Under the pieces are notes generated by a model that was not told the origin of the DNA, made no database searches, and saw only the letters and a program-made list of their open reading frames with translations. Shown here one piece after another: positions 25,181-63,858 of a stretch of DNA of 64,000 bases. Source of the stretch: Acidimicrobiia bacterium (lineage in GTDB: Bacteria > Actinomycetota > Acidimicrobiia > Acidimicrobiales > CATQHL01); NCBI GenBank assembly GCA_009835395.1, contig VXXM01000079.1, positions 20,747 to 84,746 of the forward strand. Reading direction: 5' to 3'. Numbering within the stretch: position 1 is the stretch's first letter; each line of letters begins with the position of its first letter. The translations under genes were made by a program, and so were the position numbers.

Positions 25181-25987
25181 TCACTTGGTGGCGCCCGCGG
25201 TGAGGCCGCGGACGAAGTACCTCTGCAGCAGCAGGTAGAACACCAGCACCGGGATCGACACGAAGAGCATGTAGCTGAAGAGCTGCCCGTAGTTCACGTC
25301 GAACTGCCCGACCGACCGGAACAACCCGACGGTGACCGTGTTGCCCTGCAGCGGACCCAGCAGCACCAGCGGGGGCAGGAACTCGTTCCACACCCAAACC
25401 CCGCAGATCACCAGCACGCTCGCCGTGGCCGGCCGCAGCAGCGGCAGGATCACCGACCAGTAGATGGATGCCAGGGAGGCGCCGTCTATCGAGGCCGCTT
25501 CGGCCAGCTCCCTCGGGATCGACCGCATGAAGCCGCGATACACGAGCACGGCGAACGGGGCGTAGTAGGCGCACAGGAACAGGATGAGTCCCGGGAAGCT
25601 GTTCTCCAGCCCGACGTACTTCAGCACCCGGAACACCGGGATCAGGATCACCGGAGTCGGCAGGATCAGGCCGAAGAGAATGACGGTGCCGACGGTGTTG
25701 CTGATCCAGCTGTTGGACATGTGGAGGGCGAACGCCAGCATCGAGGACACGACCATGATCAGGGCGATCGTCGAACCCGTGATGAGCAGCGAGTTCACCA
25801 GCCCGCCGGTCACGTCCCCGACGCTGAGCACCCCCGACATGCCGTCCAGGGTCGGACCGATGGGCGGCTTGGCCGGCGATCGCAGGATCTCGGGGTCGGT
25901 CTTGAAGGCGTTGGCGATCACCAGGTACAGGGGGAACAGGAAGAAGGCCGAGACGACGATCGCCAGCAGTGCCCGGAGCTGGCGCAT
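25181..25987 (-). CDS. Carbohydrate ABC importer permease, MalG type
   Basis: 268 residues from ATG 25987, overlapping the MalF-type stop (TGATG). Six hydrophobic spans are apparent. The EAA loop that docks on the ATPase reads EAASIDGASLASIYWSVILPLL, cut here by position, near residue 190. The C-terminus ends RYFVRGLTAGATK, typical of MalG-like CUT1 permeases. It forms the membrane channel with the adjacent MalF-type subunit. No dedicated ATPase is in the operon, so a shared MsmK/UgpC-type ATPase encoded elsewhere is likely. Confidence 0.92.
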   Translation of the reverse strand: MRQLRALLAIVVSAFFLFPLYLVIANAFKTDPEILRSPAKPPIGPTLDGMSGVLSVGDVTGGLVNSLLITGSTIALIMVVSSMLAFALHMSNSWISNTVGTVILFGLILPTPVILIPVFRVLKYVGLENSFPGLILFLCAYYAPFAVLVYRGFMRSIPRELAEAASIDGASLASIYWSVILPLLRPATASVLVICGVWVWNEFLPPLVLLGPLQGNTVTVGLFRSVGQFDVNYGQLFSYMLFVSIPVLVFYLLLQRYFVRGLTAGATK

Positions 25988-26949
25988 CACAACTCCACCT
26001 CGCGGCGCCGCAGCACCCGGAGCGAGATGACCGTTGTCGCCGCGGTGATCACCAGCAACAACACCGCCATCGACGAGGCCAGGCCGGCGCGATTCTGGGT
26101 GAACCCGGCGCGGATGATCGCCAGCCCGACGGTCTCCGACGAACGTCCCGGTCCACCCCCCGTCAACGCCACGACGTGGTCGTAGAGCTTCAGGGCGGAG
26201 ATGAGCGAGATCAGGGTCGTGATGGTCACCGCGGGCGCCACCAGCGGCCAGGTGATGAGGCGGAACCGCAGGTATCCCGAGGCACCGTCGATGGAGGCCG
26301 CCTCGTAGAGGTCGGTCGGGATGGCCCGGAGCGAGGCCACGTAGATGACGGTGGCGAACGCGATGAGCTGCCACGCCAGTGCCAAGCCGACCGACACGAC
26401 GGCCAGATTGGGGGAGGCGATCCACTCCGGTCCGGGGATCCCCAGCGCCTCGAGCGCGTTGTTCAGCGAGCCGTCGTTGGCCAGCGTCCAGCGGAACGTC
26501 AGGCCCACGACGAGGGGACTGAGGACGAACGGCGCGAACAGGATGATGCGCAACGTCGTGTAGAGCCGCGACCCTGCGTCCAGCAGCACCGCGAAGAGCA
26601 ACCCCAGAGCGTTGGGGATGACAACCGAGGCGGCGGCGATCAGGAGGGTGACGTAGAGGGCGTGGCGGAAGTCGCCGCTCTCCCAGAGCTTGGCGTAGTT
26701 GCTGAAGCCCACCCACGAGATCTCGTCCCGCAGGAAGTTCACGTCGTTGAGGCTGTAGTGGACGGTGATGCCGATGGGCGCCACCACCAGCGCTGCGAAC
26801 AGCGCCGTGGTGGGCGCGCCCATCGCCATCAGCCCGAAGCTGCGCCGCCCCGCGCCGGGCGGCCGGCTGCGCCCTCCGGCTCGACGGCCGGAGGGGCGCT
26901 CGGCGCGACTCCGCCCCGGCAGGAGGGTGCTCCTGGCGGCGGAGGTCAA
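25987..26949 (-). CDS. Carbohydrate ABC importer permease, MalF type
   Basis: About 320 residues if translation begins at TTG 26949, 10 bp after the binding-protein stop. An ATG at 26829 is the other plausible start; the still longer frame to 27027 overlaps the upstream gene and reads as Arg/Pro-rich noise. The transmembrane core begins at LMAMGAPTTALFAALVV. The EAA loop is EAASIDGASGYLRFRLITWP. Together with the MalG-type partner it forms a CUT1 channel for a sugar or glycoside. Start uncertain, function well supported. Confidence 0.88.
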   Translation of the reverse strand: MTSAARSTLLPGRSRAERPSGRRAGGRSRPPGAGRRSFGLMAMGAPTTALFAALVVAPIGITVHYSLNDVNFLRDEISWVGFSNYAKLWESGDFRHALYVTLLIAAASVVIPNALGLLFAVLLDAGSRLYTTLRIILFAPFVLSPLVVGLTFRWTLANDGSLNNALEALGIPGPEWIASPNLAVVSVGLALAWQLIAFATVIYVASLRAIPTDLYEAASIDGASGYLRFRLITWPLVAPAVTITTLISLISALKLYDHVVALTGGGPGRSSETVGLAIIRAGFTQNRAGLASSMAVLLLVITAATTVISLRVLRRREVEL

Positions 26950-26959
26950 GTTGGTTGGT

Positions 26960-28750
26960 TTAGCCGGAGAGGTCTTCGAGGGCGTCCTGGAGGGCCTGCG
27001 CGGCCTCCTCCGCCGACCTGCCCGCAAGCATCTCCTGGGCCTGGATCCAGATTTCGTTCTGGAGGCCCGCCACCAGGGCGTCGTCGCCCACCTCGAAGGT
27101 GTAGAAGGCGACCTGCTGCGCGTCCGGATCAGCGAGGATCTCGATGACCTCGGTGATCAGCGGGTGCAACTCGACGTCGTCGGGCAGCACGAACAGCTTG
27201 TTGTTGGCGATGTGCGCGTCACGGATCAGGTCGTCGAGGTTCGTCTCGACGTTCGTGGCGAACTCCACCGAGAACAGCCGCGCCGCCTCCGGATCAGGGG
27301 TAGCGGCCGAGATGGCCGGGCCACCCGACGTGTACGTCGCCAGGCGCTTGGTTCCGTCGAGGGTGGGCATCGGGAAGATGCCGATCTCGAACGGATGGTC
27401 CATGGGCACCGCCCCTGCGAAGAAGCTGCCCATCGGGTACATCGCCGCGGCGCCGTCGAGGAACGTCTGCTGCAGATCCGCGTAGCCGAGGTTCAACTCC
27501 TCGCCGGTGAGCCAGCCGGCCGCGACCAGCTGCTCGTACGGCCGCAGGGCCTCCACGAAGATCGGGTCGGTGAAGCTGGCCTCACCGGTGCGCAGCCTCT
27601 GGTTGAACGTGGGATCCGCGCCCGTCACGTTGAGCGAGGCCAGGTTCATGATCGGCCAGCCTGCGGCCCAGGCATCGCCCCCGGCGCCGCCGATGACGAA
27701 CGGGGTCTCACCCGATGCGGCGATCGCCAGGGCCGCGTTGATGAACTCTTCCCAGGTCTCCGGCTCGGACGTGATGCCGGCCGCGTCGAACATGTCCTTG
27801 TTGTAGAACACGCCCGACTCGTAGACCGTCAGCATCGGCAGCGCGTACTGCTTGCCGTCGGTGTAGCCGAGGCCCACCGGGTCGATGAACCGCTCCAGGT
27901 CCTCCGGCTCAAACGGCAGGAGCAGGCCCTCGGCGATGAACTCCGCGGTGGAGAAGTTGCTCATCATGATGTCGGGGAGTTGGTCGGTTGCGGCCAGCTG
28001 CTTGAGGAAGTCGCCGATGTTGAGGTCGGGAGCCACGATCTTGTTGATCTTGAACTGCGGGAAGTCCGCCACCGTGCGGGCGATGGCGTCGTCCCAGAAC
28101 TCCGCCGGCAGGTTCGGCGTCTCGAAGACCAGGAAGTCCAACTCGATCAGCTCGGCAGCGGGTGCGGCTGCTGCCGCTTCGGCCTCGGCCGCGGCCGCTG
28201 CTGCCGCCTCGGCCTCGGCCCGAGCCTCGTCGGCTTCGGCCTGCGCGGCCTCTGCCTCGGCCTGCGCGGCGGCTGCGGCCTCCCGAGCCTCGTCGGCTTC
28301 GGCCTGCGCGGCCTCTGCCTCGGCCTGCGCGGCCGCGGCCTCCGACAGCGCTGCGTCGGCGGCGGCCTGCGCGTCGGCGAGCGCTGCTTCGGCCGCGGCC
28401 ACCGCTGCCTCATTGCCCTCGGCGGTGGCCTGTGCAAGATCGGCGGCGGCCTGCGCCGCCTCAGCTGCAGCCTGAGCCGCCTCTGACGCGGCGAGCCCCG
28501 CGTCAGCTGCGGCCTCTGCGGCGGCGGCGTCGGCGATCCCGGTGGCGGCGTCGGCCTGTGCACTCCGAACCCCCGCCGCCGTCGCCTCAACCTCGGTCAT
28601 CGCCTCGGCCGCTGCGGCGGCAGCGCTCCGGGCCTCGGCCATTGCCGCGTCAGCGGCCTCCGAGCCTGAGTCGTCTGCCGCGCACGCCGCTGCCAGAAGC
28701 GTCAACACGAGCAGCGCCGCAAGAACTCCGCTCTTCCTCAGGTGTCTCAT
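26960..28750 (-). CDS. Carbohydrate-type ABC binding lipoprotein with long Ala-rich helical stalk
   Basis: 596 residues from ATG 28750, with GGAGG just upstream. Lipoprotein signal peptide 1-22, lipidated Cys23 (LLAAAC). Residues ~30-198 are almost only Ala, Glu, Gln, Asp and Arg, with a 21-residue internal repeat (AAQAEAEAAQAEADEAR twice). This part should form one long helix or coiled coil. The extracellular solute-binding domain (family 1, MalE-like) starts near 200 (DFLVFETPNLPAEFWDD). It contains GVFYNKDMFDAAGI and WEEFINAALA, usual in sugar binders. It feeds the MalF/MalG permeases encoded downstream. The stalk is almost identical in part to that of the unrelated binding protein at 29006. 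Confidence 0.93.
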   Translation of the reverse strand: MRHLRKSGVLAALLVLTLLAAACAADDSGSEAADAAMAEARSAAAAAAEAMTEVEATAAGVRSAQADAATGIADAAAAEAAADAGLAASEAAQAAAEAAQAAADLAQATAEGNEAAVAAAEAALADAQAAADAALSEAAAAQAEAEAAQAEADEAREAAAAAQAEAEAAQAEADEARAEAEAAAAAAAEAEAAAAAPAAELIELDFLVFETPNLPAEFWDDAIARTVADFPQFKINKIVAPDLNIGDFLKQLAATDQLPDIMMSNFSTAEFIAEGLLLPFEPEDLERFIDPVGLGYTDGKQYALPMLTVYESGVFYNKDMFDAAGITSEPETWEEFINAALAIAASGETPFVIGGAGGDAWAAGWPIMNLASLNVTGADPTFNQRLRTGEASFTDPIFVEALRPYEQLVAAGWLTGEELNLGYADLQQTFLDGAAAMYPMGSFFAGAVPMDHPFEIGIFPMPTLDGTKRLATYTSGGPAISAATPDPEAARLFSVEFATNVETNLDDLIRDAHIANNKLFVLPDDVELHPLITEVIEILADPDAQQVAFYTFEVGDDALVAGLQNEIWIQAQEMLAGRSAEEAAQALQDALEDLSG

Positions 28751-29005
28751 GGGTCCTCCAGTCGCGGAATTCTTGCCCGATGCCGCCCTGCCCGCGAACA
28801 AGACTTGTCGGCGGCAACGAGAAACTGCCGGGGGCACAGTAACCGGTGCTCCGCTGTGTGGGAAATGAGTAGCTCGTTGCTCGCGGCAACCTCCGACGGC
28901 TACGCATGAGCGGGAAAAACAGGGCTGTACTACAGTGCCGATCGCCGGCGCCACTGGGGGGAGGCGCCCCTCCTTCCGTTACGGCGTTGGCGGAAGGAGA
29001 TCACT
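28751..29005. promoter_or_regulatory. Divergent promoter region between two stalked binding-protein genes
   Basis: 255 bp with no gene separates the leftward sugar-type importer operon from the rightward peptide-type importer. It holds the ribosome sites of both (GGAGG on the minus strand near 28755-28760, GGAAGGAGA at 28991-28999). A small palindrome, CTGTA-C-TACAG, lies at 28925-28935 and could bind a regulator. I cannot place -35/-10 boxes with confidence. Confidence 0.45.
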
Positions 29006-31033
29006 ATGGAACCGCGACACAGCCGCCGTTGGAGGCGGTTGATCGTGCTCGCTGCTGTGACGATGCTCATCGCCGCCTCGTGCGCGGCCGATGACTCTGC
29101 ATCGGATGCCGCTGATGCCGCAGCAGCGGCCGCCAATGCCGCAATGGCGGAGGCGAGCAGCGCAGCCGCCGATGCGGCAGACGCCATGGCCGAAGCTCGA
29201 GCCACGGCGGCGGACGCCGCCACCGGCATCGCCGACGCGGCAGCCGCGGATGCCGCAGCTGCGGCGGCGCTCGCCGCGGCCGAGGCGGCGCAGGCCGCCG
29301 CCGACCTGGCGCAGGCCACCGCCGAGGGCAACGTGGAGGCCATGGCCGCTGCCGAAGCCGCGCTTGCCGACGCGCAAGCCGCCGCGGAGGCGGCGCTCTC
29401 GGAGGCCGCAGCCGCACAGGCCGAAGCCGACGAGGCGCGGGCCGCGGCCGACGCGGCACGCGAGGAGGCCGCCGCAGCGCAGGCCGAAGCCGATGCGGCG
29501 CGCGCCGAAGCCGAAGCAGCAGCTGCGGGTGCAGCCGCGGCGCCGGGCGGCCCGCAGCGCGGTGGGACGCTCACCTTCGCCCGGTTCTTCGAGACGCAGA
29601 ACCTCGACCCGGCGGGGGTGGCCGACAACGGATCCATCTTCGTGCGGGTGCAGATCTACAACACCCTCGTGGAAGCCGACCCCGACACCATCCCGAACGT
29701 CGGCCCGGGGATCGCCGACGAATGGAGTTCCAGCCCCGACGGCATGACCTGGACGTTCCACATCCGCGACAACGCACGGTTCTCCAACGGCGAGCCGGTC
29801 ACGGCCGAGGACGTGCAGTTCTCGCTGGAGCGCTTCGCGGACCCGACGATCAGCGTGAACATCCCGAGCCTCGGCGTCGGGGTCGAGAGCGTGGACATCA
29901 TCGATGATCAGACGGTGCAGGTGAACCTGGACCGCCCGGTCGGGGCGTTCCTCGAGAACATCTCGGTGTTCCCCGCATCGATCATCAACAAGGCCGCCGT
30001 GGAGGCCGAAGGCGACGACCACTGGTTGAACCCGCTCGGCACCGGCCCGTTCAAGGTGAAGGAATGGGTACCCGGCTCGCACATCACCCTCGAGCGCAAC
30101 GAGTACTACTGGGAGGAGGGCAAGCCGTATCTCGACGAGATCCGGTTCGACTACATCCCCGACGACAACGCCCGCATGCTGCGCATGCAAGGTGGCGACG
30201 CCCACATCCTGGAGGGCGTGCCCTGGACGCAGATCCCCGACCTGCAGGACAGCGAGGGGTTCAGCATCCACGTGGCTGACATCGTCCGCTACGAGGGCGT
30301 GTTCCTGAACCACACCATCCCGCCGCTCGACGAGATCGGCGTGCGCCAGGCTCTGAACTACGCCACCAACAAGGCGGCGATCAACGAGGCGGTCTACGGG
30401 GGCGTCGGCGAGATCGCCAACAGCATGATCCCCAAGGCGCTGTACCACTCCGACTACGACACGCTGCCGGCGTACTTCTACGACCTCGAGAGGGCCCAGG
30501 AACTGATGGCGGCGTCGTCGATGCCCGACGGCTTCGATCTCGCCTATATCTACCCGTCGGGATCCACTGCCCACGAGCAACTCGGGACCATCCTCCAGGC
30601 GGACTGGGCGAAGATCGGCGTGAACCTCACCATCGAGGAGGTGGACACCGGCACGCTGTTCGGCGACCGCTTCTTCACGATGGAGTACGAGTCGGGCGTG
30701 CCGCTGCCCAAGTTCACGTCCGACGTGGTCGTGCCCGACGAGGTGGCGTTGCTGTTCTACGACAAGGCCCCGGAGAACATCCTGGCCGGGTTCTTCACCG
30801 GCTGGGACATCCCCGACGAACTCGAGCGCCTCACCGAGGAGGCGGCGTTCACGAACGATGAGGCCATACGGGCCGAACTCTGGCCGGAGGTGCAGCGCAT
30901 CGCCATGGAGGAGGCCCCGTGGGTGACACTGTTCTTCCTGCCCACCGTGCACGCGGTGGCCGACGGTGTCGAGGGATTCCGTGTCGTGCCCAACGGCTGG
31001 TGGGACATGGAGGATGTCTGGCTCAGCGGCTGA
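29006..31033 (+). CDS. Peptide/Opp-type ABC binding lipoprotein with long Ala-rich helical stalk
   Basis: 675 residues from ATG 29006. Signal peptide with Cys26 (LIAASC). Residues ~31-180 form an Ala/Glu/Asp/Gln-rich helix. The family 5 binding domain begins near 184 (QRGGTLTFARFFETQNLDP) and shows typical blocks such as WTFHIRDNARFSNGEPVTAEDV split by position, LGTGPFKVKEW and RQALNYATNKAAINEAVYGG. It captures peptides, nickel chelates or oligosaccharides for the Dpp-type transporter at 31129-35013. Stalk residues 91-141 match residues 95-144 of the neighbouring family 1 protein nearly residue for residue, although the binding domains are unrelated. Confidence 0.94.
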   Translation: MEPRHSRRWRRLIVLAAVTMLIAASCAADDSASDAADAAAAAANAAMAEASSAAADAADAMAEARATAADAATGIADAAAADAAAAAALAAAEAAQAAADLAQATAEGNVEAMAAAEAALADAQAAAEAALSEAAAAQAEADEARAAADAAREEAAAAQAEADAARAEAEAAAAGAAAAPGGPQRGGTLTFARFFETQNLDPAGVADNGSIFVRVQIYNTLVEADPDTIPNVGPGIADEWSSSPDGMTWTFHIRDNARFSNGEPVTAEDVQFSLERFADPTISVNIPSLGVGVESVDIIDDQTVQVNLDRPVGAFLENISVFPASIINKAAVEAEGDDHWLNPLGTGPFKVKEWVPGSHITLERNEYYWEEGKPYLDEIRFDYIPDDNARMLRMQGGDAHILEGVPWTQIPDLQDSEGFSIHVADIVRYEGVFLNHTIPPLDEIGVRQALNYATNKAAINEAVYGGVGEIANSMIPKALYHSDYDTLPAYFYDLERAQELMAASSMPDGFDLAYIYPSGSTAHEQLGTILQADWAKIGVNLTIEEVDTGTLFGDRFFTMEYESGVPLPKFTSDVVVPDEVALLFYDKAPENILAGFFTGWDIPDELERLTEEAAFTNDEAIRAELWPEVQRIAMEEAPWVTLFFLPTVHAVADGVEGFRVVPNGWWDMEDVWLSG

Positions 31034-31128: not shown

Positions 31129-32076
31129 ATGTGGGGGTTCCTAGGGCGACGGGTGCTGCACAGCATCTGGGTGCTGGCCGCCATCATCATCGTGTCGTTC
31201 CTGGTCATCCGGCTCATACCGGGCGACCCGGTCGTGCAGATGCTGGGACTCCAGGCGACACCGGAGAACATCGCGGCTGTCAACGAGGACCTCGGGTTGG
31301 ACCTCCCGATGGGTCAGCAGATCACCTCGTTCGTGCAGCGCGCCTTCCAGGGCGACCTGGGCACGTCCATCATCAAGCGGGCGCCCGTGAACGACATCGT
31401 GTTCGACAGGCTCCTGCCCTCGGTTTACCTGCTCCTGTATGCCACGGTCCTGGCGCTGATCATCTCGGTACCGCTCGGCGCCCTCTCGGCCATCTACCGC
31501 AATCGCGTGCCTGACCAGATCGTCCGGCTGACAAGCATGGTGTCCTTCGCCATGCCGCAGTTCTGGCTGGGCCTGATGCTGATCCTGCTGTTCGCCATCC
31601 AGCTCGACGTGTTGCCCAGCGGGGGTTACGGGGAGGGGTTCGGCGGGATCCTCCTGCACCTCACGCTGCCGGCGCTCACGATCGGCCTCTACCTCGCCCC
31701 GCAGCTCATGCGCACGCTGCGGTCGAGCCTCATCGAGGCGATCGACAGCGACTACGTGGAGGCTGCCCGCTCCCGGGGCTACCGGGAGAGCCGGGTGGTG
31801 GGCAAGCTGGCCATGCGCAACGCCCTGGTGCCGCTGATCAGCGTTCTCTCCATCAACATCGGCTTCCTCATCAGCGGCACGGTGATCGTGGAGGTGGTCT
31901 TCCAGGTGCCGGGCCTCGGGGCCCTGCTCGTGCAGTCGGTGCTCAACAGGGACTACCCGGTGATCCAGGGGCTGATCCTCGTCTTCGGGGCGATGGTCAT
32001 TCTCGTCAACATCCTCGCTGACGCCGCCTACGCCGTGGTCGACCCGAGGGTGCGAGCAGGGATGGCCGCCGAATGA
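31129..32076 (+). CDS. Peptide/Opp-type ABC permease, DppB-like
   Basis: 315 residues; first span at residues ~9-29 (VLHSIWVLAAIIIVSFLVI), then the large extracytoplasmic loop with GDPVVQMLG and the RGYRESRVVGKLAMRNALVP docking loop (EAARSRGY). The overall pattern is the DppB/OppB group. It pairs with the DppC-like permease, overlapping it by 4 bp (ATGA). GGGAGG lies 12 bp before the ATG. Confidence 0.94.
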   Translation: MWGFLGRRVLHSIWVLAAIIIVSFLVIRLIPGDPVVQMLGLQATPENIAAVNEDLGLDLPMGQQITSFVQRAFQGDLGTSIIKRAPVNDIVFDRLLPSVYLLLYATVLALIISVPLGALSAIYRNRVPDQIVRLTSMVSFAMPQFWLGLMLILLFAIQLDVLPSGGYGEGFGGILLHLTLPALTIGLYLAPQLMRTLRSSLIEAIDSDYVEAARSRGYRESRVVGKLAMRNALVPLISVLSINIGFLISGTVIVEVVFQVPGLGALLVQSVLNRDYPVIQGLILVFGAMVILVNILADAAYAVVDPRVRAGMAAE

Positions 32077-32975
32077 GGACCCTCGCCTGGGCGGGCCGCC
32101 GTGCCGTGGGCCTCAGAGGGGAGGCGGCCGACCTGCTGCGCCAGGCCCAGACGGAGCGGCGCTGGTCGAACGTCACCCTGGGCGTCGGGATCGCCATCGT
32201 GGGCGCGCTCGCGGTCGCGGGCTTCTTCGCATCCGTGATCGCTCCCGCCGACCCCAATGCCGTCGACCTGACCCAGCGGCTGCTGAGTCCCTCCGGGAAG
32301 CACTGGATGGGAACCGATCCGTTCGGTCGGGACATCTTCACCCGCACGCTCTACGCCATCCGGCTCGACCTCATCGTCGTTCTCATCATCACTTACGTTC
32401 CGATGGTCTTCGGGATGATCGTGGGGGCGCTCGCCGGCTACTTCCGGGGGTGGGTGGACGCCGTCACGATCCGTGTGATCGACGCCTTCATCGCCTTCCC
32501 GTTCATCGTGCTGGTGATCGCCGTGGTGGCGATCCTGGGGCCGGGACTGCAGGGGGTGTACATCGGGGTTCTCGCCGTGGGTTGGACCTTGTACGCCCGC
32601 CTCACCAGGGGCGACATGCTGGTGCTGCGCGAGCAGCAGTTCATCCTGGCGGCGCGCACGCTGGGCTACTCGCCGCGGCGGGTCATCCTCCGCCACGCCA
32701 TCCCAAACCTGATCAGGTCGAACCTGGTGTTCTCGATGGCCGACATCGTGCTGAACCTGCTGCTGCTGGCGGGGCTGTCGTACCTGGGGTTGGGTGTGCA
32801 GGCGCCGACGGCGGAGCTGGGTGCGATGGTTGCCGACGGCCAGTCGTTCCTGCTCCAGGCGTGGTGGGTGACGACGCTGCCGGGCGTGGTGATCGTGGTC
32901 CTCGGCGCGGGCTTCAGCATGATCGGTGATTCGCTGGCCGACCGCCTCGGCCAGAAGTTCGGAGTGGTCGGATGA
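32073..32975 (+). CDS. Peptide/Opp-type ABC permease, DppC-like
   Basis: 300 residues. N-terminal cytoplasmic extension of ~45 residues, then SVIAPADPNAVDLTQRLLSP cut by position, and the hallmark HWMGTDPFGRDIFTRTLYAIR of OppC/DppC proteins. ATPase-docking loop: ILAARTLGYSPRRVILRHAIPN. It ends by overlapping the first ATPase gene (ATGA). Six membrane spans expected. Forms the channel with the DppB-like subunit. Confidence 0.94.
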   Translation: MRTLAWAGRRAVGLRGEAADLLRQAQTERRWSNVTLGVGIAIVGALAVAGFFASVIAPADPNAVDLTQRLLSPSGKHWMGTDPFGRDIFTRTLYAIRLDLIVVLIITYVPMVFGMIVGALAGYFRGWVDAVTIRVIDAFIAFPFIVLVIAVVAILGPGLQGVYIGVLAVGWTLYARLTRGDMLVLREQQFILAARTLGYSPRRVILRHAIPNLIRSNLVFSMADIVLNLLLLAGLSYLGLGVQAPTAELGAMVADGQSFLLQAWWVTTLPGVVIVVLGAGFSMIGDSLADRLGQKFGVVG

Positions 32976-33994
32976 CGTCCCTCGACGCGGCGCCCCGAAC
33001 CGACCGGCCGGAGGCGAGCGCAACTCCGCTCCTCACCATCGAAGGTCTCCGCATCGGCTTCCCGTCGCTGGAGGGCCTCGTCCTCGCCGCCAACGACGCT
33101 CATCTGACCGTCGGTGAGGGTGAGGTCCTGGGGCTGGTCGGGGAGTCGGGGTCGGGCAAGAGCGTGACGTGCCGTGCCATCGTGGGGATGGTTCCCCATC
33201 CGGGGGCGGTACTCGGGGGGCGTATCGACTTCGCCGGGCGCAACGTCCTGGAATTCAGCAAGGCTGAGATGCGCGAGCTACGGGCCCGCCAGATCGCCAT
33301 GATCTTCCAGGATCCTGCCAGCGCCCTCAACCCGGTCTTCACGATCGGCCACCAGATCTCCGAGGTCCTGCGGCTGAACGCCGGACTCAGCCGAGCCGAG
33401 GCCCGGAACAGGAGCATCGAGTTGCTGGAGCGGGTGGGGATCCCGGCGCCGGACAGGCGCATGTCGGCATACCCGCACGAGATGAGCGGCGGTATGCGCC
33501 AGCGGGTCATGATCGCCATGGCGCTGGCAGGCGAGCCTCGCCTGTTGCTGGCCGACGAGCCGACGACCGCCCTTGACGTCACGATCCAGGATCAGGTGTT
33601 GCGGCTTCTCGAGGACCTGCGGCGGGAGCGCAACATGTCGATGATCCTTGTCTCGCACGACATGGGGGTCATCGGCACGGCCGCCGACCGCGTGGCAGTC
33701 ATGTACGCCGGGCGCATCGTGGAGGTTGCCCCGACCGATGTCCTGTTCTCGCGCCCCGACCATCCCTACACCCGGGCGCTAATCGATGCGATGCCGCAAC
33801 TCACCCCGGAGGATCGGTCCGACCTTCGCACCATCCCGGGCCAGCCGCCCGACCTGCTGAAGCTGCCGGAGGGTTGCCCCTTCGCCCCTCGCTGCCCGCT
33901 TGCGCGCGACGAGTGCGCAGAGGTGTCGATGGAGTTGACCGCCGTCTCGCCGGCGCAGTCCTCGGCGTGCCCGTTCGCGCGGGACGGGTCATGA
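32972..33994 (+). CDS. Peptide/Opp-type ABC ATPase, DppD-like
   Basis: 340 residues. Walker A GESGSGKSVT, Q-loop MIFQDPASALNPVF, ABC signature MSGGMRQRVMIAMA and Walker B LLLADEPTTALD are all intact. The C-terminal oligopeptide/dipeptide extension has the FeS-like Cys pattern CPFAPRCPLARDEC found in DppD/OppD. Hydrolyses ATP to drive import with the DppF-like partner, which starts inside its stop codon. Confidence 0.95.
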   Translation: MTSLDAAPRTDRPEASATPLLTIEGLRIGFPSLEGLVLAANDAHLTVGEGEVLGLVGESGSGKSVTCRAIVGMVPHPGAVLGGRIDFAGRNVLEFSKAEMRELRARQIAMIFQDPASALNPVFTIGHQISEVLRLNAGLSRAEARNRSIELLERVGIPAPDRRMSAYPHEMSGGMRQRVMIAMALAGEPRLLLADEPTTALDVTIQDQVLRLLEDLRRERNMSMILVSHDMGVIGTAADRVAVMYAGRIVEVAPTDVLFSRPDHPYTRALIDAMPQLTPEDRSDLRTIPGQPPDLLKLPEGCPFAPRCPLARDECAEVSMELTAVSPAQSSACPFARDGS

Positions 33995-35013
33995 GTGCGC
34001 ACGCGCCCACCGGTGCTCGCGACGGCGTGCCGATTCTCGTGGTGGCGGCGCTGGAGAAGTGGTTCGCCGTCGCACGCTCGCCTATCGACGTGATTCGCCG
34101 GAGGCCGCGAGAGCGCGTTCACGCCGTGGACGGTGTCTCGCTGCAACTGCTGCCGAACGAGGTGCTCGGGATCGTCGGCGAATCAGGGAGCGGCAAGAGC
34201 ACCCTGGCCCGCTGTCTGGTCGCCCTGTACCGGCCCGATCAGGGGACCATCAACTTCGACGGGGTCGACGTCACCGAGGCCACGGGACAGGTGCGCCGCG
34301 ATCTCCACGGCCGGATGCAGATGATCTACCAGGATCCGTTCACCTCGCTCAACCCGCAGATGTCGATCGGCGCGGCCATCGAGGAGGCCGGCAAGGTGCA
34401 CGGCCGCGAGGGCGACGACTTCGTGGGTGACCTCCTCGAAGTGGTCGGATTGCCGCGTTCGTTCGCTCGGCGCCGGCCCCGGGCGCTGAGCGGGGGGCAG
34501 CGGCAGCGGGCCGCCATCGCTCGAGCGCTGGCCGTGCAACCCGAGGTACTGATCGCGGATGAGGCCGTGAGCGCGCTCGACGTGTCCATCCAGGCTCAGA
34601 TCCTGAACCTGTTCGCCCAGCTCAGCGACGATCTGGGCCTGGCGATGATCTTCATCGCCCACGATCTGGCCGTCGTCTCCCACGTCGCCGACCGCGTCGC
34701 CATCATGTACCTCGGGCGGATCGTCGAGGAGGGTCCGGTCGAGTCCGTCTTCCGCACCCCCAGGCATCCGTACACGCGGGCGCTGCTCGACGCCCACCCC
34801 GATCCGTACGCGCTCGGCGCGGCCGAGGAGACCGCCGCGATCTCGGGAGACATCCCCTCGCCGCTCGACATCCCGTCGGGATGCCGTTTCCGGACCCGCT
34901 GCCCCTACGCCACGGACGTCTGCGAGACCGATGATCCGGCGCTCGCGCCCGACGACCGGCCGCATCGAGTGGCCTGTCACGTGCTGCCGTTCGGACCCCC
35001 GGCGGAGGGTTAG
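33991..35013 (+). CDS. Peptide/Opp-type ABC ATPase, DppF-like
   Basis: 340 residues from ATG 33991, overlapping the previous stop (ATGA). Walker A GESGSGKSTL, Q-loop MIYQDPFTSLNPQMSIG, signature LSGGQRQRAAIARAL and Walker B VLIADEAVSALD are intact. The C-terminal cysteine cluster is CRFRTRCPYATDVC. It completes a five-gene importer (binding protein, two permeases, two ATPases). Last gene before a convergent SRPBCC gene. Confidence 0.95.
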   Translation: MSAHAPTGARDGVPILVVAALEKWFAVARSPIDVIRRRPRERVHAVDGVSLQLLPNEVLGIVGESGSGKSTLARCLVALYRPDQGTINFDGVDVTEATGQVRRDLHGRMQMIYQDPFTSLNPQMSIGAAIEEAGKVHGREGDDFVGDLLEVVGLPRSFARRRPRALSGGQRQRAAIARALAVQPEVLIADEAVSALDVSIQAQILNLFAQLSDDLGLAMIFIAHDLAVVSHVADRVAIMYLGRIVEEGPVESVFRTPRHPYTRALLDAHPDPYALGAAEETAAISGDIPSPLDIPSGCRFRTRCPYATDVCETDDPALAPDDRPHRVACHVLPFGPPAEG

Positions 35014-61786: not shown

Positions 61787-61812
61787 CATCGCACGATCCA
61801 AGGGGGATGAAG

Positions 61813-63858
61813 ATGACGAGGAAGAACTATTGGACGCGACTCCTGGCGATCGGGGTCGTCCTCTCCCTCCTCCTGGCGGCGTGCGCCGCCGAGGACACGG
61901 GCGAGACGGACGCCGCGCGCGCCGAGGCGGCGGCCGCCCAGGCGGCAGCCGACGCGGCCTCGGCAGCCCAAGCAGCCGCCGAGGCTGAGGCCGAGCAGGC
62001 CAGGGCCGAGGCCGAACTGGCTGCGGCGCAGGCAGCGGAGGACGAGGCTGCCGTTGCCGCCGCCGAGGCGGCAGTGGCGGAGGCCGAGGAGAGAGCAGCC
62101 GCTGCTGCGGCGGCCGCCGATGCTGCGGCGGCCGCCGCCGAGGCGGAGGCCGCGGCTGCCGAGGCTGAGGCCGAGCAGGCCAGGGCCGAGGCCGAGCTGG
62201 CTGCCGCTCACGCCGCGGAGGACGAGGCCGCTGTGGCCGCCGCCGAGGCCGCTCTGGCTGAGGCGGAAGCAGCAGCCGCGGCAGCCCAGGACGCCGCCGC
62301 GGACGCGCAGGCGCAGGCCGAAGCAGCGCAGGCGCAGGTTCAGGCCGCCCAGGCCGAGGCAGCTGCGGCACTGGCCGCTGCGGAGGAGGCCGCGGCCGCT
62401 GCTGGTATCGATCTCAACAACGTGATCATCAGCACGCCCAGCCTCGTGGCGCAGGCCGACTACGCCCGTGCGCCCTACGTCGCCCCGGCCCACGCCGCGG
62501 GCCTGCTGGCCTTCGGTGGCTACCTGTACCGCTATGACCCGCAGGGCGACTACGTCCCGGACCTGGCGACGGACTTCCCGGAGTTCTCCGAGGACGGCCT
62601 GACGATGACGGTGACGCTGCGCGAGGGGCTCGTCTACTCCGACGGCACACCGGTCGTGGCCCAGGATGCCGTCGTGACCTTGCAGCGCGCCAGGGACGAG
62701 GGACCGTTCGGAGCCCAGATGGCTTCGTTCGAGTCCGCCGAGGCCGTTGACGATCGCACGATCGTCTACACCCTGAACGAGCCGTTCAGCTGCCTCAACA
62801 ACCAGATCGTCTGCAGCGAGAACATGCCTCTGCACCCGCACGAGCAGGTGCTGGCAGACCCCGAGGGCTACTTCGCCAAGCCGGTCAGCGCCACGCAGTA
62901 CGTGGTTTCGGACTGGGTGCCCGGATCCCCGACGATGGTGCTCGAGGCCAACCCCACCTACTGGGCAGGCGAGGCCGTCATCAAGAAGCTCACGCTGGCG
63001 TCGGCCACCGACCCGATCTCGCGACTGTTGCAAGTCACCACCGGGGCCGCCGCAATGGGCTTCGACATTCCCGCATCGGTACGCGCCGACCTGCCGGACG
63101 ACGTCATCCAGATCGTCCACCCCATCGGCGGCACGTTCTGGTTCGTGATCCGCAGCGACGTCGAAGGGCCCCTTGGTGACGTGAGAGTGCGCAAGGCCCT
63201 GTGCCTCGCCATGGACCGCGACGCGATCAACGAGAGGGCGTTCCTGGGCACGGCCGAGCCGGGTGGCTCGATCCTCTCCAGGTACCGGAGCGAGTGGGAA
63301 TACGAGGACATCGTCCCGCTGGAGCGTGACGTCGAGGGTGCCAAGGCTCTACTGGCTGAGGCCGGCTATCCCGACGGATTCTCGACGCCGCTGCAGACGA
63401 TGGGTGCTCGTCCAGGCTGGACGGACGCCGCGACGATCCTGGCCGAGAACTGGGCCGACATCGGCGTCACCGCCGAGGTGCAGCCCCTGGAGGACGCCAT
63501 CATCATCGACAACATCATCAACCGGGCCTACGACGCCATGTGGATCGGGAGCGGTGGTCCGAACTTCTCGACCCTGCGGACCCTGTTCTACCCGGACAAT
63601 TTCTGGTCCAGGTCGGTGGCATTCGCCGATGACTCGGTGACGGCCGCGTTCGACGAGTTGGCGCAGGCCATGCCGAGGGGTGAGATGGAGGCGTCACAGC
63701 GCCTGCAGTCCGAGGTGCAGCGTCTGGCGCTCGACATCGGCGCCAACTACTGCCCCCAGGGTGAGCGCGCCGTCCTCGTCGGCAGCCGCCTGTCGACGGA
63801 CATCCTGGCGATGATCCCGGCTTCCCAGAACTTCTGGGTCGCCACCGAGGGCGGATAG
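61813..63858 (+). CDS. Peptide/Opp-type ABC binding lipoprotein with long Ala-rich helical stalk (third copy)
   Basis: 681 residues from ATG 61813 (MTRKNYWTR) with AAGGGGG 6 bp upstream; ATG 61807 is less well spaced. Signal peptide, Cys24 (LLAAC). Residues ~31-197 are an Ala/Glu/Gln/Arg-rich helix with a 60-residue direct repeat (EAEAEQARAEAELAAA at 57-72 and 117-132). The family 5 binding domain starts near 200 (LNNVIISTPSLVAQ) and shows DLATDFPEFSEDGLTMTVTL (split by position) and RVRKALCLAMDRDAIN. No permease or ATPase follows inside the window; they may lie beyond the end. Confidence 0.92.
   Translation: MTRKNYWTRLLAIGVVLSLLLAACAAEDTGETDAARAEAAAAQAAADAASAAQAAAEAEAEQARAEAELAAAQAAEDEAAVAAAEAAVAEAEERAAAAAAAADAAAAAAEAEAAAAEAEAEQARAEAELAAAHAAEDEAAVAAAEAALAEAEAAAAAAQDAAADAQAQAEAAQAQVQAAQAEAAAALAAAEEAAAAAGIDLNNVIISTPSLVAQADYARAPYVAPAHAAGLLAFGGYLYRYDPQGDYVPDLATDFPEFSEDGLTMTVTLREGLVYSDGTPVVAQDAVVTLQRARDEGPFGAQMASFESAEAVDDRTIVYTLNEPFSCLNNQIVCSENMPLHPHEQVLADPEGYFAKPVSATQYVVSDWVPGSPTMVLEANPTYWAGEAVIKKLTLASATDPISRLLQVTTGAAAMGFDIPASVRADLPDDVIQIVHPIGGTFWFVIRSDVEGPLGDVRVRKALCLAMDRDAINERAFLGTAEPGGSILSRYRSEWEYEDIVPLERDVEGAKALLAEAGYPDGFSTPLQTMGARPGWTDAATILAENWADIGVTAEVQPLEDAIIIDNIINRAYDAMWIGSGGPNFSTLRTLFYPDNFWSRSVAFADDSVTAAFDELAQAMPRGEMEASQRLQSEVQRLALDIGANYCPQGERAVLVGSRLSTDILAMIPASQNFWVATEGG
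61981..62268 (+). repeat. 180 bp direct repeat inside the stalk-coding DNA
   Basis: Bases 61981-62088 and 62161-62268 are the same sequence with a few mostly third-position changes, exactly 180 bp (60 codons) apart. They encode the repeated EAEAEQARAEAELAAA region. This suggests that the stalk grew by in-frame duplication. Confidence 0.85.

What the first reader, a model, noticed from the sequence alone, without database searches (positions are those of the whole stretch)
26960..31033. Unrelated ABC binding proteins share a near-identical Ala-rich helical stalk
Two divergent neighbours, a family 1 (sugar-type) and a family 5 (peptide-type) binding lipoprotein, carry ~150-170 residues of Ala/Glu/Gln/Asp/Arg between the lipid anchor and the binding domain. 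Family 1 residues 95-144 and family 5 residues 91-141 (around AEAAQAAADLAQATAEGN) match almost residue for residue, although the binding domains are not homologous. The stalk therefore moved as a module. At 0.15 nm per residue an uninterrupted helix of 160 residues would be about 24 nm, enough to lift the receptor through the wall. Normal binding proteins have only a short flexible linker, so this suggests an undescribed receptor-positioning architecture.
Basis: partly seen in the sequence, partly recalled or inferred. Interest (0 to 1): 0.85.

Follow-up and report, generated by a model that had tools for sequence, protein, structure and literature searches.

The report
Swappable hairpin foot on nutrient receptors
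In this bacterial genome about two dozen proteins, predicted to be lipid-anchored and mostly unrelated nutrient receptors, share an alanine-rich segment that is predicted to fold back on itself as a long hairpin, sits where some sister-genus relatives have a quite different linker, and likely serves as an exchangeable foot rather than a tall mast.

Summary
The two neighbouring binding lipoproteins share a homologous Ala-rich stalk: 46 of 50 residues identical in the quoted stretch, score far above residue and heptad-register shuffles, excess synonymous-codon identity. The same stalk sits on 23 ORFs of this genome, before six Pfam binding-protein families (a seventh weak) and an M16 peptidase. 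A third, double-tipped version lies at 61807-63858.
AlphaFold2 gives two helices broken at a conserved Gly-Asn (F1 stalk alone: pLDDT 90, helices of 87 and 81 residues). The best structural matches include antiparallel hairpins such as RipA. Arm lengths come in heptad steps, and the arms change together (20 of 29 contrasts same direction, 0 opposite). So it is likely a 10-13 nm hairpin with the receptor at its foot, not a 24 nm mast.
Three sister-genus orthologs (71-79% identical binding domains) have Pro- or Thr-rich linkers at the same place, so the hairpin looks like an exchangeable cassette. No Pfam or PDB sequence relative of the stalk was found. Function (spacer, bundling or docking) is inferred, not shown.

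The parts
26960..28750 (-). F1: family 1 (SBP_bac_1) binding lipoprotein, 596 aa, with hairpin stalk
   Evidence: searches (start; Pfam SBP_bac_1 2e-27), stop TAA at 26960-26962
28682..28684 (-). F1 lipobox Cys23 (LLAAAC-AADD)
   Evidence: sequence; lipobox pattern, lipidation not tested
28418..28678 (-). F1 N-arm of the hairpin (residues 25-111, predicted helix of 87)
   Evidence: stalk-only AlphaFold2, H3-89
28412..28417 (-). F1 predicted tip turn Gly112-Asn113 in LAQATAEGN
   Evidence: tip conservation
28169..28411 (-). F1 C-arm of the hairpin (residues 114-194, predicted helix of 81)
   Evidence: H92-172; DNA repeats with periods including 21, 42, 63 and 84 bp
26963..28138 (-). F1 sugar-type binding domain
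   Evidence: Pfam residues 248-493
29006..31033 (+). F5: family 5 (SBP_bac_5) binding lipoprotein, 675 aa, with hairpin stalk
   Evidence: (1.2e-92)
29081..29083 (+). F5 lipobox Cys26 (LIAASC-AADD)
   Evidence: sequence; lipidation not tested
29099..29320 (+). F5 N-arm of the hairpin (residues 32-105)
   Evidence: AlphaFold2 H32-105
29321..29332 (+). F5 predicted tip turn AEGN (106-109)
29333..29527 (+). F5 C-arm of the hairpin (residues 110-174)
   Evidence: H110-174
29567..31030 (+). F5 peptide-type binding domain
25184..27027 (-). two ABC permease frames downstream of F1 (starts not fixed)
   Evidence: BPD_transp_1 in window:25990-27027:- and window:25184-26716:-
31129..35013 (+). importer genes downstream of F5: two permeases and two ATPases with oligo_HPY
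61807..63858 (+). third stalked SBP_bac_5 lipoprotein of the window, 683 aa, with two tandem tip-like motifs (AAEDEAAVA) 60 residues apart

Best explanation
The shared stalk is a homologous cassette that is predicted to form an antiparallel alanine-coil hairpin and likely acts as an exchangeable membrane-side foot for receptors with a predicted lipid anchor, rather than as a mast. Shown by the calls: homology of the stalk on unrelated binding domains, heptad steps in arm length, joint change of the two arms, and different linkers at the same place in close orthologs. Predicted: the N-arm leaves the lipid anchor for about 10-13 nm, turns at the conserved Gly-Asn, and the C-arm returns close to the anchor, where the binding domain hangs beside its importer, in some proteins on an additional Pro-rich tether. 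Inferred: the hairpin replaced or was added to disordered linkers as a rigid, acidic spacer that keeps the receptor at the membrane while a fin stands up into the wall zone; it spreads by recombination between stalk genes and grows or shrinks by 21-bp repeat units.
Against: A residue-covariation test between the arms was not informative (14 of the top 40 pairs on the antiparallel diagonal, 12.5 expected; effective number of sequences 36). The heptad register runs through the tip without a phase shift (Ala at the same two phases in both arms), so register alone would also fit one continuous helix with Asn in a core position. AlphaFold2 was run on monomers only; a parallel oligomer was not tested. 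Only 11 of 22 own-genome anchor-to-tip lengths have remainder 5. Some paired arm changes are probably whole-stalk swaps rather than paired indels (L213). SBP1b shows no rank correlation across 4 distinct pairs. Arms do not match in L030 (61 and 36) or in the VWA lipoproteins (short N-arm). Nothing tests the function.
Confidence: 0.55

Rival explanations
1. One reading: one uninterrupted helix, or a parallel bundle of several, carries the receptor about 24 nm outward.
For: Predicted helical except at the tip; heptad phase is continuous across the tip, and Asn in a core position is tolerated in parallel coiled coils (second point recalled).
Against: AlphaFold2 breaks at Gly-Asn in both proteins. 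Matched arm lengths and joint length change are not expected of a rod. Best structural matches include hairpins over nearly the whole stalk.
Confidence: 0.1
2. Lateral bundling module: hairpins of different receptors pack together through their alanine faces, so that many receptors form mixed clusters.
For: The stalks are 48-60% Ala in their first 90 residues (ten stalks), which leaves spare small faces. The near-identity of stalks on unrelated receptors would follow if they must fit each other.
Against: Stalks are strongly acidic (E+D 22-36 against K+R 1-5 in the 12 stalks counted), which would repel, and N-arm lengths differ by about six heptads between receptors (60 to 103).
Confidence: 0.2
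3. Docking handle: the conserved tip LAQATAEGN is recognised by one shared partner in wall or membrane, as the RipA hairpin is bound by SteB.
For: Tip residues vary far less than arm ends and arm lengths; 145 of the 192 listed database hits with a recognisable tip (of 194) carry exactly LAQATAEGN. RipA-SteB precedent (PMC12977500; abstract, outline and passages seen).
Against: The conserved residues also fit a purely structural role (Leu and Val plug, Gly-Asn turn). No partner was identified. Some orthologs do without the hairpin.
Confidence: 0.13
4. Low-complexity artefact: GC-rich slippage makes Ala/Glu repeats that resemble each other by composition or through misassembly.
For: The DNA is repetitive, largely in multiples of 21 bp, and several stalk copies lie at contig ends.
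Against: Shuffles and codon test; same motif in other genomes of the genus; 69 of 76 stalks are nearest to a stalk of the same ortholog group.
Confidence: 0.02

Closest known systems
RipA N-terminal coiled-coil hairpin (Actinomycetota cell-wall hydrolase)
   Same: Antiparallel helical hairpin of similar size in an actinobacterial envelope protein; the F1 stalk model superposes at 1.7 A over 163 residues. In the SteB complex it stands roughly perpendicular to the membrane (PMC12977500, passages).
Lpp / OprI alanine-zipper lipoproteins (PF04728)
   Same: Lipobox followed directly by an Ala-containing heptad helix (recalled).
   Different: Predicted to turn back; carries a binding domain; almost no Lys; no Pfam match at E up to 10.
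HlyD/MacA-type adaptor hairpins
   Different: No lipoyl or beta-barrel domain found by Pfam in the proteins scanned.
Alacoil (tight antiparallel Ala coil)
   Same: Ala at two of seven positions in both arms, 92-98% except one at 71%.
   Different: Alacoil is a packing motif; the packing distance was not measured here. Name recalled; one search was a listing only.
ABC substrate-binding lipoproteins with disordered linkers
   Same: Same kind of lipobox and binding domains; importer genes lie beside F1 and F5.
   Different: Pro-, Thr- or Ser/Asp/Gly-rich linker instead of the hairpin.

Membership tests
ABC substrate-binding protein family 1 (PF01547), F1 | Pfam profile above curated cut-off | tested here: met
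   97.4 bits against 26
ABC substrate-binding protein family 5 (PF00496), F5 | Pfam profile above curated cut-off; fold of peptide-binding proteins | tested here: met
ABC importer operon | permease genes adjacent | tested here: met
   BPD_transp_1 beside both genes; ATPases with oligo_HPY beside F5
Bacterial lipoprotein | signal peptide ending in a lipobox Cys | tested here: met
   sequence pattern only, Cys23 and Cys26; lipidation itself not testable
Lpp (PF04728) | profile match | tested here: not met
   no Pfam match of the three window stalks at E up to 10; HMMER's filters can hide weak or biased matches
Lpp (PF04728) | C-terminal Lys for peptidoglycan linkage (recalled) | tested here: not met
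   stalk leads into a binding domain; Lys 0 or 1 in the 12 stalks counted
RipA / NlpC-P60 hydrolase with coiled-coil hairpin | antiparallel helical hairpin | tested here: met
   predicted model only
RipA / NlpC-P60 hydrolase with coiled-coil hairpin | NlpC/P60 domain | tested here: not met
   Pfam of F1, F5 and 20 other own-genome stalk proteins
RipA / NlpC-P60 hydrolase with coiled-coil hairpin | SteB partner | not tested
   no search for SteB was made
HlyD/MFP adaptor | lipoyl or barrel domains flanking the hairpin | tested here: not met
   none at E up to 0.001 (0.01)
Single alpha-helix (SAH) domain | rich in Arg, Glu and Lys, stabilised by salt bridges | tested here: not met
   48-60% Ala in ten stalks, K+R 1-5 per 140-183 residues in 12; definition from the abstract of PMC5347031 in the listing
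Alacoil | very close inter-helix distance | not testable with these tools
   no coordinates returned by structure prediction

The most novel reading that the evidence does not exclude
The hairpin is a lineage-specific receptor chassis: one recombining, length-tunable, lipid-anchored alanine-coil fin fitted to many classes of binding protein and to other envelope proteins (M16 peptidase, VWA lipoproteins, an anti-sigma-like membrane protein), through whose conserved tip or alanine faces a cell gathers unrelated receptors in one shared envelope array. In one variant a second turn (three-helix stalk) would flip the receptor to the far end, turning the foot into a mast.
Probability: 0.2. Interest if true: 0.85.

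Novelty: new variant of a known kind. Interest (0 to 1): 0.62.

Why it matters
Receptor tethers in bacteria without an outer membrane are usually treated as passive linkers. Here close orthologs exist with and without a predicted rigid hairpin, and many unrelated receptors in one cell carry the same one. This gives natural replicates for asking what the geometry of the tether does for uptake, and shows a repeat-rich envelope domain that has come to sit on many folds and changes length in heptad steps.

Tried and rejected
Continuous 24 nm rod: rejected as best reading. Composition-only similarity: rejected. Residue covariation between arms: uninformative. Lpp or any Pfam family for the stalk: no match. 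PDB sequence relatives of the stalk: none at E up to 1; a profile of alignment A3 (stalk plus family 1 domains) gave 87 matches, and in the 60 shown the best stretch starts at profile position 178 or later, that is in the binding domain. Foldseek had no PDB match of the stalk at E <= 0.001; the VIA matches are a common arrangement and also include F-BAR, chemoreceptor and SMC helices. A first fold search with the whole F5 model tested only the binding domain. Class-wide tip pattern: 20 places in the own genome, one each in 15 of the other 394 genomes; nine of those 15 places were fetched, seven gave a frame with the motif, none in an Ala stalk, and the other six places were not read. The pattern misses diverged tips: the sister genus scored 0, yet has at least four Ala-rich stalks (L240, L297, L298, L302). 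Tip residues are invariant by construction in loci fetched by that pattern; conservation is therefore quoted from the protein searches. The lists show 120 of 298 and 120 of 178 hits, and P0091 in them is an Ala-rich protein without the tip. My first arm table mis-cut some C-arms and was redone; L028 is still cut short by a Phe, and in the filtered figure 11 of 91 proteins were dropped. One locus (L171, two tips 133 bp apart) gave no frame passing the filter, and nine other fragments or cut genes were left out of the Pfam tally (61 of 70 non-own ORFs used). NCBIfam gave no model for F1 and only sub-cut-off ones for F5. Literature: nine searches listed no paper that I recognised as describing such a stalk on binding proteins; listings only, except PMC12977500, of which I saw abstract, outline and passages.
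Full report

How widespread. A protein search of the own genome gave 26 places (150 of 628 candidates scored), which with the later stretches resolve to 23 ORFs. Pfam, at E up to 0.001, finds SBP_bac_1 in 4, SBP_bac_5 in 6, Peripla_BP_6 in 2, Peripla_BP_4 in 3, OpuAC in 1, NMT1 in 1, a Peripla_BP_1 below its cut-off in 1 and peptidase M16 in 1; three gave no family and one cut at a contig end was not scanned. One of the three, L034, does match Peripla_BP_4 in the genome search, so the scan can miss families in these Ala-rich proteins. A third stalked SBP_bac_5 in the window (61807-63858) was not among the places but is Ala-rich and has two tip-like motifs 60 residues apart. In seven other genomes of the genus the tip pattern occurs 4-18 times each. 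Of 61 of those ORFs (70 found), 18 match SBP_bac_5, 13 SBP_bac_1, 10 Peripla_BP_6, 6 Peripla_BP_4, 2 NMT1 and 1 SBP_bac_8 (a protein can match more than one family). Database searches list 298 and 178 hits (120 shown each), with Bmp, OpuAC and VWA (YfbK-type) proteins added, a few named Acidimicrobiia. P0102 has a hydrophobic stretch that reads as a membrane span, a Pro-rich stretch and then the hairpin motif ('anti-sigma-like' is my reading of the sequence, no Pfam family supports it).

Arm lengths. Distance from Cys to the tip Gly has remainder 5 on division by 7 in 91 of 117 database hits (three of 120 could not be measured) and in 112 of 181 of the enlarged set (13 of 194 not measured). 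In the own genome it is 11 of 22. The two arms go together: rho 0.72 for 22 own-genome proteins, 0.65 for all 91, 0.77 for 80 after dropping 11. In five ortholog sets with independent contrasts, of 29 with N-arm change of at least 3 residues the C-arm changed the same way in 20, less than 3 in 9, the opposite way in none; some of these are probably swaps of whole stalks. Within sets: F5 rho 0.76 and F1 rho 0.81 over distinct pairs, SBP1b -0.06 over 4 pairs. Tandem DNA repeats in the stalks have periods including 21, 42, 63, 84 and 126 bp, besides 6 and 15. Residue covariation between the arms was uninformative, and the heptad phase runs through the tip unchanged, so those two do not separate hairpin from rod. 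Arms do not match in L030 or in the VWA lipoproteins.

Origin. The exact tip pattern is absent from the one sister-genus genome held and occurs once each in 15 of 394 other class genomes; nine of these were fetched and the seven that gave a frame are not Ala stalks. The sister genus nevertheless has at least four diverged Ala-rich stalks (L240, L297, L298, L302; none was modelled), among them orthologs of the double-tip protein (L302, 76%) and of L028 (L240, 73%). Three other sister-genus orthologs, with 70.5%, 78.6% and 78.2% identical binding domains (to L003, L026 and L033), carry Thr-rich, Thr/Ala/Pro and Pro-rich linkers in the same place (L304, L301, L299). In L026 and L033 the hairpin stands in front of a Pro-rich stretch, as if added to the old linker. 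An ortholog of L028 in another family of the order has a Ser/Asp/Gly linker (L289). Within the genus 69 of 76 stalks are nearest to a stalk of their own ortholog group and 7 to another group, the exceptions being members of the F1, F5 and L003 groups and L213. So the hairpin likely arose in the family, spread in this genus onto receptors that had floppy linkers, and is since mostly inherited with them, with occasional exchange.

Mechanism, with what is inferred. A hairpin returns to its anchored end, so the binding domain would hang near the membrane and the importer while a fin of 10-13 nm stands in the wall zone. Because some orthologs manage with a linker that looks disordered, a spacer or tether role is the most economical; shared docking or lateral bundling would better explain the conserved tip and is not excluded. 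The acidic surface (E+D 22-36, K+R 1-5 in 12 stalks) speaks against simple bundling. RipA shows that an actinobacterial hairpin can be held roughly perpendicular to the membrane by a partner (PMC12977500; abstract, outline and passages).

Verdict. The mast reading does not stand. I rate it a new variant of a known kind: a predicted helical-hairpin tether, without a match in Pfam and PDB sequence searches, on many unrelated receptors of one lineage. The host class is given as Acidimicrobiia because relatives are so named; contig lengths tie two genomes of the genus to bins IRC4_bin_37 and APA_bin_18, which I recall as sponge samples.

Noticed in passing
window 61807-63858 (+): Third stalked SBP_bac_5 lipoprotein with two tip-like motifs at stalk offsets 53 and 113; the commonest ortholog lengths differ by 7 (688, 681, 674, 667). 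Segments of 53, 60 and 67 residues could be a three-helix stalk with the receptor at the far end.
   Followed up: partly
L225:1429-3987: M16 peptidase lipoprotein with the same stalk and an acidic Pro/Glu linker.
   Followed up: no
P0120, P0172, P0200: VWA (YfbK-type) proteins with lipobox-like start, Pro-rich stretch, then the tip motif with a short N-arm (arms not matched).
   Followed up: no
P0102: Protein with an anti-sigma-like N-terminus, one hydrophobic stretch, Pro-rich stretch, the tip motif, and a duplicated C-terminal segment.
   Followed up: no
L261, L262, L299: Other binding lipoproteins carry long (PAPEP)n-type linkers of about 60-85 residues.
   Followed up: no
G398:C95:16313-16472 (L171): Two tip motifs 133 bp apart, not a multiple of three: a frame change or an assembly fault in a repeat.
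   Followed up: no
L001, L254, L226, L169, L205: Several stalk genes are cut at or near contig ends, so repeats may break assemblies and stalk counts per genome are lower bounds.
   Followed up: no
P0117: A stalked Bmp-type protein with two tandem binding domains.
   Followed up: no
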